Positions 40,872 to 43,520 of a DNA stretch of 57,026 bases are shown piece by piece. Position 1 is the stretch's first letter. Every line of letters begins with the position of its first letter. The notes under the pieces are model-generated. The model had not been told where the DNA came from, made no database searches, and saw nothing but the letters and a program-made list of their open reading frames with translations. The translations under genes and the position numbers were made by a program. Source of the DNA: Thermodesulfovibrionales bacterium (GTDB lineage Bacteria; Nitrospirota; Thermodesulfovibrionia; Thermodesulfovibrionales; SM23-35); contig JASEEX010000008.1 in assembly GCA_030019415.1 (NCBI GenBank), positions 1 through 57,026 on the forward strand, in the 5' to 3' direction.

Positions 40872-41957
40872 TTATTCAATTCCCCCATATGCGTGGAGCC
40901 CTGAGAGTAATAAGTTTACGCCAAGGTAGGTAAATATTACTGTTAAGAAACCTATTACGGCAACGATTGCTACCCTTTTTCCTCTCCATCCTCTTATCAT
41001 GCGACTATGAAGATAGAAGGCGTAGACAAACCATGTTATTAAAGACCATGTCTCTTTCGGGTCCCAGCTCCAGTATGACCCCCACGCCTGATCAGCCCAG
41101 ATAGCGCCGAAGATGAGACCTCCTAATGTAAATACAGGGAACCCGACGGCAATACTCTTATAGGTGATCTCATCCAGAGTTTCAGCAGAGATGTTGAATT
41201 TCTCTATGACTGTTTTAAGAACAGATCCAAATCTCCAGGTAATAAATATAATGACTATCATTGATATCCAGCTGAGGACCTTAACCGCCGTTGACGAATT
41301 GAGAAACGAGGCCTTGAGCATATAGTTTTTTATAAATTCTTCAGGTCTAACAGCAACCTTGAATGTAAGGAAATCAATGCCCATTATAAGCAGTAAGGTT
41401 ACGAAGATTCCGAGTGTAAATGTCCAGAATATATATGCAGCCTGATTTCTCTTCTCGGTCTTCAAGATAAGGTACATGAGTCCTGTGCTAAAGGAAAGGG
41501 CAAATGCGGCGTAAGCTATAAAACTCATCGTCACATGGGCAAGCAGCCAGTTACTTTGAAGTGCTGGTATGAGGGGGTGTATCTCCTTTGACATACCTGA
41601 TATATCTATAAATGCCAATGCTAAACCTGCGACAGGTGTAACAAATGCTCCGAAAGAGCGGTTTTTATATCTGAACTCTAATATAAGATACCCTAATATA
41701 AGACACCATACAAAAAATACCATGGATTCATAAAGGTTTGTTAGAGGTGCTGACCTTATAATGCCCATTTCACTAACGTCATAGAATTCCTTCCACCTCA
41801 TTAAGATTGCCATTGTCTGGGAGACGAAACCTATAACTGTCACTGTTGTAGCTGCTATCCCGATCTGTGTTTTTCTGAAGGCGAGATAGGTTATATAGAT
41901 TATCATGGCAAGGATGTAGGACATGGTTGATATCCCGAATAAAAAGGAACTGTCCAT
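40872..41957 (-). CDS. ccsB: Cytochrome c biogenesis protein CcsB (CcsA/ResC type)
   Basis: 361 residues with eight or more membrane helices. The haem-handling WWD domain is present (WADQAWGSYWSWDPKETWSL), with conserved histidines in HVTMSFIAYAAFALSFSTGL and YLHSRMIRGW. Together with ResB it forms the system II haem export and ligation machine needed for the sixteen-haem cytochrome. Start and stop look normal. It abuts resB directly. Confidence 0.93.
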   Translation of the reverse strand: MDSSFLFGISTMSYILAMIIYITYLAFRKTQIGIAATTVTVIGFVSQTMAILMRWKEFYDVSEMGIIRSAPLTNLYESMVFFVWCLILGYLILEFRYKNRSFGAFVTPVAGLALAFIDISGMSKEIHPLIPALQSNWLLAHVTMSFIAYAAFALSFSTGLMYLILKTEKRNQAAYIFWTFTLGIFVTLLLIMGIDFLTFKVAVRPEEFIKNYMLKASFLNSSTAVKVLSWISMIVIIFITWRFGSVLKTVIEKFNISAETLDEITYKSIAVGFPVFTLGGLIFGAIWADQAWGSYWSWDPKETWSLITWFVYAFYLHSRMIRGWRGKRVAIVAVIGFLTVIFTYLGVNLLLSGLHAYGGIE

Positions 41958-43520
41958 CTAATCTCCTCCCTCCCGTCTCTTTCTGATAAGGAAAATCAAC
42001 TTGTCTATCTTCCTCTCAAAGGCAGACCTGTTCTTATTCGATGTCGCCCCCATATATACTCTTGTACTGTCCTTCTCTTCGACGATCCTTACCCATAACT
42101 TTTTATGGCTCATAAAGAAGGCCATGTAGAGTCCTATGGCAATTGTAATACAACCAAGATACACAATCCATACGCCGGGGTCTTTTCTGACCTGAAGGCC
42201 AGTATATTGAGTCCCCCATAGATCTATGAATTCCACAACATGGCTTTCTGGAAGCTTCCCTGTTATCGGATATCTCTTGAGTATCCAGCCAGAGTATTTC
42301 TTTTTTCCTCCCTCATTAAAATCTATAAAAACAGCAGGATTGTTCATCATGTTTGTGAACGTGAAAGGCCTTCCCTGATGATCAAAGGAAAGGGCAGGGC
42401 TGAAATCCTTTATAGTTCCTTCTAAATCTGTACCATGGATGGTGAATCTATCACCGAGATTTAATCTTTTAATTTCTGATACCCCGGAGTGAGAAGTTAT
42501 CCTTAGAATAAACCAGCCATGGGCATGAGACATCATGCCATAACTGGATTGATAGAAGGTGATGCCTTTATATTTAAGTGGGTCATTGACCTCTATGGCC
42601 TTTTTCAAAACCTCTTTTCCGTCCTCTATAACAGTTAGCCAGCTTCTATATTTCTTAGGCATGTCAGACCCTTCATAAAATTCAACATCAAAATCATCGC
42701 ATCTTATGCTGAACCCGAGTGGCTGTATGCCATATACGCGCAGCTTCTCTTTAAGAGACTTCTCTTTTATACCCAGTATCTCAGATGCCTTCGAGGTATT
42801 ACCCCAGGATGCCTCGAGGACATTTACTATCCTGTCTCTTTCTTGCTCCTCCGACTGGGTCAAAGGGGCTGAATGCAAAAAGGCTATAGAATAGCTCCTG
42901 CCTTCGGGAAGATTGAGGAATCCCTTAAAGCCGAAAGAAATCCCTACAAGGGCTCCTATCAGTATAAATATTATGCTTGTATGAGTTATGTAAACACCAA
43001 GCCTTGTATAATTGCCCTTCTGGGAATAAAACTGATAACCTTTATCTTCTTTAGACTCCACATAACTAAACCCTATGCCATTTATAGCCCCCGCAACACT
43101 GTCCTTTACTCTGTCAGGCTTTCCCCTTAATAAAAGTTCCCTTTTTATCACAGCCATTTCAAAACGCTCAGTGGCAAGCGGCCGAATCGGCTCCCTGACC
43201 ATCTTCCATATCCTTGGCAGCCTGTCGAGGGAACAGATGATAATATTGGCCGAAAGCAGAATCAGGAGGGTAATGAACCACCATGAATGGTACATATCCA
43301 TGAAACCGAGTTTTTCAAATACCCTGTAGATAATTGGTGCAAGGGATTCCCCAAAGAGTCTGCTTAATATCTGGATATTCCTGGCGGGTTCTGCACGTTG
43401 TTCCAGAACCGTTCCTATGATTGCAGTAAGGGATATTAAAGCAAAAATAACAATCGCAAACTTTATAGAAGCTAATAAACCCCGGATTTTATCAATTAAT
43501 GTCATTCTTTCTTCTGACAA
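41958..43520 (-). CDS. resB: Cytochrome c biogenesis protein ResB with an embedded Fis-type HTH segment
   Basis: 520 residues. Three N-terminal membrane helices, a large periplasmic domain (FSIRCDDFDVEFYEGSDMPK, YKGITFYQSSYG) and a C-terminal helix (VWIVYLGCITIAIGLYMAFF) are ResB hallmarks. Between LPEGRSYSIAF and PLGFSIRCDDF, residues about 222-266 read ERDRIVNVLEASWGNTSKAS then EILGIKEKSLKEKLRVYGI, the classic C-terminal Fis-type helix-turn-helix of NtrC-like activators. ResB proteins normally have only a short loop here. The reading frame is open throughout. Confidence 0.9.
   Translation of the reverse strand: MSEERMTLIDKIRGLLASIKFAIVIFALISLTAIIGTVLEQRAEPARNIQILSRLFGESLAPIIYRVFEKLGFMDMYHSWWFITLLILLSANIIICSLDRLPRIWKMVREPIRPLATERFEMAVIKRELLLRGKPDRVKDSVAGAINGIGFSYVESKEDKGYQFYSQKGNYTRLGVYITHTSIIFILIGALVGISFGFKGFLNLPEGRSYSIAFLHSAPLTQSEEQERDRIVNVLEASWGNTSKASEILGIKEKSLKEKLRVYGIQPLGFSIRCDDFDVEFYEGSDMPKKYRSWLTVIEDGKEVLKKAIEVNDPLKYKGITFYQSSYGMMSHAHGWFILRITSHSGVSEIKRLNLGDRFTIHGTDLEGTIKDFSPALSFDHQGRPFTFTNMMNNPAVFIDFNEGGKKKYSGWILKRYPITGKLPESHVVEFIDLWGTQYTGLQVRKDPGVWIVYLGCITIAIGLYMAFFMSHKKLWVRIVEEKDSTRVYMGATSNKNRSAFERKIDKLIFLIRKRREGGD

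What the first reader, a model, noticed from the sequence alone, without database searches (positions are those of the whole stretch)
42723..42857. Fis-type helix-turn-helix inside the periplasmic loop of ResB
Residues about 222-266 of ResB (ERDRIVNVLEASWGNTSKAS, EILGIKEKSLKEKLRVYGI) match the DNA-binding end of NtrC-family activators almost perfectly, including the G-N-x-S-K-A-x-x-x-L-G-I core. The flanks are ordinary ResB. A DNA-binding fold in a periplasmic domain makes no immediate sense, so this is a recombination product, a repurposed fold for protein or haem contact, or a lineage trait not described.
Basis: partly seen in the sequence, partly recalled or inferred. Interest (0 to 1): 0.7.

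Follow-up and report, generated by a model that had tools for sequence, protein, structure and literature searches.

The report
DNA-binding fold domesticated in cytochrome builder
A cell-envelope protein that helps attach haem to cytochromes carries, outside the membrane, a small domain descended from the DNA-gripping end of gene regulators; many related bacteria share it, it has lost the chemistry for holding DNA, and it is most likely reused to touch other proteins.

Summary
ResB (window 41958-43520, minus strand) carries a ~47-residue Fis/NtrC-type helix-turn-helix (aa ~219-265) in its periplasmic domain: Pfam HTH_8 29.8 bits, cut-off 22. AlphaFold gives three confident helices between two beta strands; the insert alone matches the NtrC1 DNA-binding domain at 1.2 A. 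It is neither a recent join nor an assembly error: 40 distinct ResB of one Nitrospirota class carry it at the same site, others lack it cleanly. Insert and backbone evolved together (Mantel 0.66, 0/2000) under purifying selection (dN/dS 0.21 against 0.125). The fold was kept while DNA-contact chemistry was lost: net charge +1.0 against +6.5 in real regulators of the same lineages, recognition-helix Arg 72% to 0%. Helicobacter CcsBA has a ~100-residue periplasmic extension at the same site, just before the 'beta cap' plug Phe/Tyr. Best reading: an ancient, domesticated HTH serving as a peripheral protein-contact module of the cytochrome c synthase; the contact role is inferred. A structural passenger is the main rival. 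New variant of a known kind.

The parts
41958..43520 (-). resB (ccsB) coding sequence, 520 aa, TTG start as listed (an in-frame ATG lies at residue 6)
   Evidence: ORF; PF05140 ResB E=1.2e-92 over aa 20-506
42726..42866 (-). inserted Fis/NtrC-type HTH module, aa ~219-265
   Evidence: HTH_8 hit aa 224-262, 29.8 bits; absent from insert-less relatives at the same site
42810..42857 (-). insert helix 1 (aa 222-237), the helix before the HTH in Fis/NtrC
   Evidence: AlphaFold2 model, mean pLDDT 94.3; coordinates
42774..42797 (-). insert helix 2 (aa 242-249), first helix of the HTH
   Evidence: AlphaFold2 model
42735..42764 (-). insert helix 3 (aa 253-262), equivalent of the recognition helix; the Arg typical of regulators is Glu253
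   Evidence: AlphaFold2 model; position statistics
42876..42896 (-). ResB beta strand before the insert (aa 209-215); residue 210 is Ser in 40/44 insert-less and 3/40 insert-bearing relatives
42678..42728 (-). ResB beta strand after the insert (aa 265-281), which leads to the beta-cap plug loop
   Evidence: alignment to H. hepaticus CcsBA
42675..42692 (-). Phe277 ... Tyr282, equivalents of H. hepaticus CcsBA Phe240/Tyr245 of the beta-cap loop over the haem site
   Evidence: alignment with PMC10663686; both near-invariant
40872..41957 (-). resC (ccsA) partner gene, 361 aa, directly after resB
   Evidence: PF01578 Cytochrom_C_asm E=3.5e-50

Best explanation
A C-terminal Fis-type HTH of an NtrC-family regulator was inserted long ago into a surface loop of ResB's periplasmic domain, in an ancestor of a large part of this Nitrospirota class (Thermodesulfovibrionia by record titles). 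It was kept as a folded three-helix module, lost its DNA-contact surface, lacks the first dimer helix, was inherited with resB, and was lost again in several sublineages. Shown: presence, fold, homology, site, co-inheritance, purifying selection, loss of charge. Inferred: it extends the beta-cap domain of the ResBC cytochrome c synthase and works by protein contact (apocytochrome, a thiol-redox partner, or ResB/ResC itself), tuning access to the haem site rather than catalysis. Confidence about 0.95 for the origin and nature, about 0.5 for the protein-contact role.
For: HTH_8 above cut-off in the window; 30 of 40 insert-bearing ResB match HTH_8 at E<=1. The insert profile finds ZraR, NtrX, NtrC1 and Fis in the PDB at E 4e-7 and weaker. 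The insert model matches NtrC1 DBD 4l5e at 1.2 A, TMt 0.92, with Fis/NtrC filling nearly all top places. Forty distinct insert-bearing and 59 insert-less ResB share the same boundary; 35 of 396 sampled phylum genomes match across the insert, all in one class. Mantel 0.66, 0/2000; pooled dN/dS 0.21. HTH net charge +0.97 against +6.50, p=5e-16; recognition Arg 72% to 0%; K/R before AA 96% to 30%. The same site holds the ~100-residue PD1 extension of H. hepaticus CcsBA; C. jejuni is predicted to have an extra beta-sheet extension of PD1 (PMC11322641).
Against: No partner is shown and no surface patch of the insert is conserved. The insert evolves faster than its surroundings (mean pairwise identity 0.32 against 0.54), and many relatives do without it, so it cannot be essential to ResB in general. 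Its position relative to ResC was not modelled. Most inserts of family f4 and those of f8 no longer score clearly as HTH, so their homology rests on site and alignment.
Confidence: 0.55

Rival explanations
1. Structural passenger: the HTH was inserted by chance into a tolerant loop, folds on its own, does no harm and has no specific role; purifying selection only keeps it folded.
For: Relaxed selection relative to flanks (0.21 against 0.125); no conserved surface residues; absent from many sister lineages; the same loop holds unrelated insertions in other lineages.
Against: Retained across families and, with f18, probably across orders, still folded, with dN/dS well below 1; flank residue 210 tracks presence of the insert; repeated absence shows that removal is possible, yet most carrier families keep it.
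Confidence: 0.33
2. The module still binds nucleic acid, either in the periplasm or because ResB is inverted.
For: HTH fold intact; the window insert is more positive than the average insert (+3 against +1).
Against: Position between TM3 and TM4 by hydropathy, with the plug residues of the periplasmic beta cap right behind it; DNA-contact Arg/Lys lost or made acidic; a single HTH without its dimer helix.
Confidence: 0.03
3. The insert contacts haem or helps load it.
For: It sits on the strand that leads to the beta-cap plug over the haem site.
Against: No conserved His, Cys or Met in the insert; the known haem ligands of CcsBA are elsewhere (PMC10663686, PMC11322641).
Confidence: 0.05
4. Recent recombination or an assembly or binning artefact joining a regulator fragment to resB.
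For: The genome is a 166-contig assembly; GC3 of the insert is somewhat higher (0.53 against 0.43).
Against: 39 other distinct ResB sequences carry the homologous insert at the same point with diverged sequence; co-inheritance and purifying selection.
Confidence: 0.01
5. The insert is a copy of the HTH of the NtrC-family regulator encoded just downstream of resB-resC in many relatives (a claim about origin, compatible with any function).
For: resB-resC-histidine kinase-NtrC gene order in several lineages.
Against: Inserts resemble unlinked regulators at least as well (mean best identity 0.354 against 0.292; profile scores higher for unlinked in nearly all inserts that score well). The test is weak for a 42-residue domain.
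Confidence: 0.12

Closest known systems
CcsB/ResB of System II cytochrome c biogenesis, including fused CcsBA (PDB 7s9y, 7s9z; PF05140)
   Same: Full ResB profile; four hydrophobic segments; beta-cap strand with the plug Phe/Tyr; resC next to resB; best fold match is 7s9y/7s9z
   Different: Carries a helical HTH_8 module in the loop where CcsBA of Helicobacter has a different ~100-residue extension and most ResB have about 8 residues
Fis-type HTH of sigma-54 activators and Fis (PF02954; 1ojl ZraR, 4l5e NtrC1, 1ety Fis)
   Same: Profile match, three-helix fold at 1.2 A to NtrC1 DBD, conserved HTH core and C-terminal YGI
   Different: No receiver or AAA+ domain, no first dimer helix, DNA-contact Arg/Lys lost, inside a membrane protein on the outer side
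PD1 extensions of epsilonproteobacterial CcsBA (PMC10663686, PMC11322641)
   Same: Lineage-specific extensions of the same periplasmic domain; in H. hepaticus at the same insertion point
   Different: No sign there of an HTH; the C. jejuni extension is described as beta sheet

Membership tests
ResB/CcsB (PF05140) | Match to the ResB profile over its whole length | tested here: met
   311.7 bits, aa 20-506, profile 2-486 of 486
ResB/CcsB (PF05140) | Beta-cap loop with Phe/Tyr plug (Phe240/Tyr245 in H. hepaticus) | tested here: met
   Phe277/Tyr282 aligned and near-invariant in 84 relatives; definition from PMC10663686
ResB/CcsB (PF05140) | Encoded with ResC/CcsA | tested here: met
   PF01578 gene directly downstream, window 40872-41957
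ResB/CcsB (PF05140) | Cytochrome c synthase activity with ResC | not testable with these tools
   Needs reconstitution
Fis-type HTH (PF02954 HTH_8), as fold and homology | Score above the curated cut-off | tested here: met
   29.8 bits against 22; 30 of 40 insert-bearing relatives match at E<=1
Fis-type HTH (PF02954 HTH_8), as fold and homology | Three-helix HTH fold | tested here: met
   Helices 222-237, 242-249, 253-262; 4l5e 1.2 A, TMt 0.92
DNA-binding Fis/NtrC domain | Basic DNA-contact surface and recognition-helix Arg | tested here: not met
   Mean net charge +0.97 against +6.50; recognition Arg 0% against 72%; window +3, with Glu at that place
DNA-binding Fis/NtrC domain | Binds DNA | not testable with these tools
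   Needs a binding assay
NtrC-family sigma-54 activator | Sigma54_activat AAA+ domain | tested here: not met
   Only ResB and HTH_8 in the Pfam scan

The most novel reading that the evidence does not exclude
The DNA-binding domain of a transcription factor was moved outside the cell membrane and turned into a partner- or substrate-recognition module of the cytochrome c synthase, used by one class of Nitrospirota and dispensable in its sister lineages.
Probability: 0.45. Interest if true: 0.72.

Novelty: new variant of a known kind. Interest (0 to 1): 0.58.

Why it matters
HTH domains reused for protein contact are known in general (own knowledge), but a Fis-type HTH inside an extracytoplasmic enzyme domain was not found described in the open papers searched. 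It gives a natural with/without comparison, in close relatives, of an accessory module on the poorly understood periplasmic domain of System II cytochrome c synthases, whose beta-cap role is only proposed. It also warns annotators that an HTH_8 hit here does not mean a regulator.

Tried and rejected
Recent recombination or artefact: rejected by 39 further distinct homologous ResB inserts and by selection. Donor = downstream NtrC of the operon: attractive but not supported by similarity. Single clade of insert-bearing ResB: rejected, 9 changes and at least 6 forced by starred branches. Correlated backbone positions: only residue 210 in the flank is convincing; the others are confounded by kinship, with five independent pairs. 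Foldseek with the whole ResB model shows only CcsBA and chance matches, not the HTH, so the insert was modelled alone. The first segment query had the wrong frame.

Full report
Observation. The resB frame lies at 43520-41958 on the minus strand, 520 aa, followed directly by resC at 41957-40872. Pfam finds ResB over aa 20-506 and, nested in it, HTH_8 over aa 224-262 at 29.8 bits, cut-off 22. NCBIfam gives only weak matches to the C-terminal ends of NtrC-family regulators and to Fis. The window's genome is a 1.94 Mb, 166-contig assembly with five other HTH_8 proteins above the cut-off. Against an HMM of 50 real regulator HTHs the insert scores 44.9 bits; 1695 scored shuffles of all inserts reach at most 9.9.

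Relatives. ResB searches and alignments show two kinds of ResB in this order. One has about 47 extra residues between the strand after LPEG and PLGFSIRCDDF; the other has about 8 residues there. The tree set holds 40 distinct insert-bearing ResB, 59 insert-less, and two with a different, shorter insert at the same place. In a sample of 396 genomes of the phylum, 35 have a single match spanning the insert, in families f1, f2, f4, f5, f8, f9, f13 and f18, all in the window's class (my count from the listed rows; weaker matches are not listed there). Record titles name Thermodesulfovibrionales, Thermodesulfovibrionia and Nitrospirae.

History. On the ResB tree built without the insert columns the trait needs 9 changes, at least 6 forced by supported branches. 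In family f1 the RpoB tree agrees with the ResB tree: ten insert-less genomes form a supported clade, and the insert-bearing ones and one insert-less genome fall outside it. Insert and backbone distances correlate (Spearman 0.66, 0 of 2000 permutations). An old single insertion, mostly vertical inheritance and repeated loss is the simplest story; transfer between lineages is not excluded. One f13 genome, G336, has both an insert-bearing f5-like copy and an insert-less copy. Counts on a tree cannot by themselves tell gain from loss.

Selection. Over 11 independent close pairs, dN/dS is 0.21 in the insert, 0.114 in the rest of the periplasmic domain and 0.125 in the whole rest. The insert is kept by selection, more loosely than its surroundings.

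Fold. AlphaFold2 on the window ResB with 84 sequences gives mean pLDDT 94.3; the insert is three helices (222-237, 242-249, 253-262) between strands 209-215 and 265-281, with block pLDDT 96-98. The insert alone gives pLDDT 78, and Foldseek puts Fis and NtrC domains in nearly all top places, NtrC1 4l5e at 1.2 A over 45 columns; E-values are modest (0.02-0.1) because the domain is tiny, with probability 1.00. By sequence the insert profile finds ZraR, NtrX, NtrC1 and Fis in the PDB. The first dimer helix of Fis/NtrC is not part of the insert (inference from the aligned range).

Chemistry. In the aligned HTH core the inserts have mean net charge +0.97 and real regulators of the same lineages +6.50 (p=5e-16). 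The K/R before the paired alanines falls from 96% to 30%; the Arg at the start of the recognition helix from 72% to 0%, with Glu in 57%; the buried A, L, G, I positions mostly stay. The window insert has +3 and Glu at that place. This is the mark of a fold kept for something other than DNA. The comparison set is 40 inserts and 50 regulators, not corrected for kinship.

Place in ResB. Hydropathy gives four membrane segments, with the insert between the third and fourth, the large periplasmic domain by the known topology of CcsB (own knowledge; PMC10663686). The profile alignment to H. hepaticus CcsBA shows that protein with about 100 extra residues at the same point, and aligns its beta-cap residues Phe240 and Tyr245 with window Phe277 and Tyr282 (definition of the beta cap in PMC10663686; equivalence found by counting residues in the alignment). 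The beta cap is proposed, not proven, to cover the haem site. C. jejuni is predicted to have an extra extension of PD1 (PMC11322641). So this loop is a place where lineages add modules; here the module is a former DNA-binding domain.

Function. Shown: a folded, selected, weakly charged HTH module on the beta-cap domain. Inferred: protein contact (0.5). No conserved surface patch or haem ligand was found, so a lineage-specific partner, a spacer or lid, or a passenger all remain. Position 210 in the neighbouring strand is Ser in 40 of 44 insert-less and 3 of 40 insert-bearing ResB, the same way in about 4 of 5 independent pairs, a sign of local accommodation.

Origin. In several relatives resB-resC is followed by a histidine kinase and an NtrC-family regulator, but the inserts are no closer to those HTHs than to unlinked ones.

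Limits. No reads, no coordinates of models, no complex with ResC. Collections outside the phylum were searched only by short patterns, so ResB with an HTH in other phyla may be missed. The literature search covers open papers only.

Noticed in passing
L254:3306-12998 (G014:C115, a relative in family f1): A 2296-aa single ORF is a fused RNA polymerase beta-beta' (Rpb2_3, _6, _7 then Rpb1_1, _2, _4, _5), followed by a 321-aa protein with a sigma-54 DNA-binding domain and a protein with a Sigma54_activat AAA+ domain. The genome also has a normal RpoB (L246). It looks like a self-contained sigma-54 transcription cassette, perhaps of a phage or mobile element; one paper search found no description. 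Worth its own study.
   Followed up: partly
L150 (G390:C62) and L151 (G151:C43), resB: A different insert of about 24 residues (EPMWDxIxxSLGxxKS) sits at the same ResB site in one member of genus g28, whose other sampled members carry the HTH insert, and in a ResB of another class.
   Followed up: partly
L163 (G057:C79), resB: An in-frame deletion runs from the middle of the HTH through the beta-cap strand, removing the plug Phe/Tyr; a real loss or an assembly error.
   Followed up: no
L119/L146 and L147 (G336): One genome has two resB copies, one with the HTH insert and f5-like, one without; suggests transfer of an insert-bearing resB.
   Followed up: partly
L204-L223: resB-resC is followed by a HAMP/HisKA histidine kinase and an NtrC-family regulator in several families, suggesting two-component control linked to cytochrome c biogenesis; the window itself lacks this pair next to resC.
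   Followed up: partly
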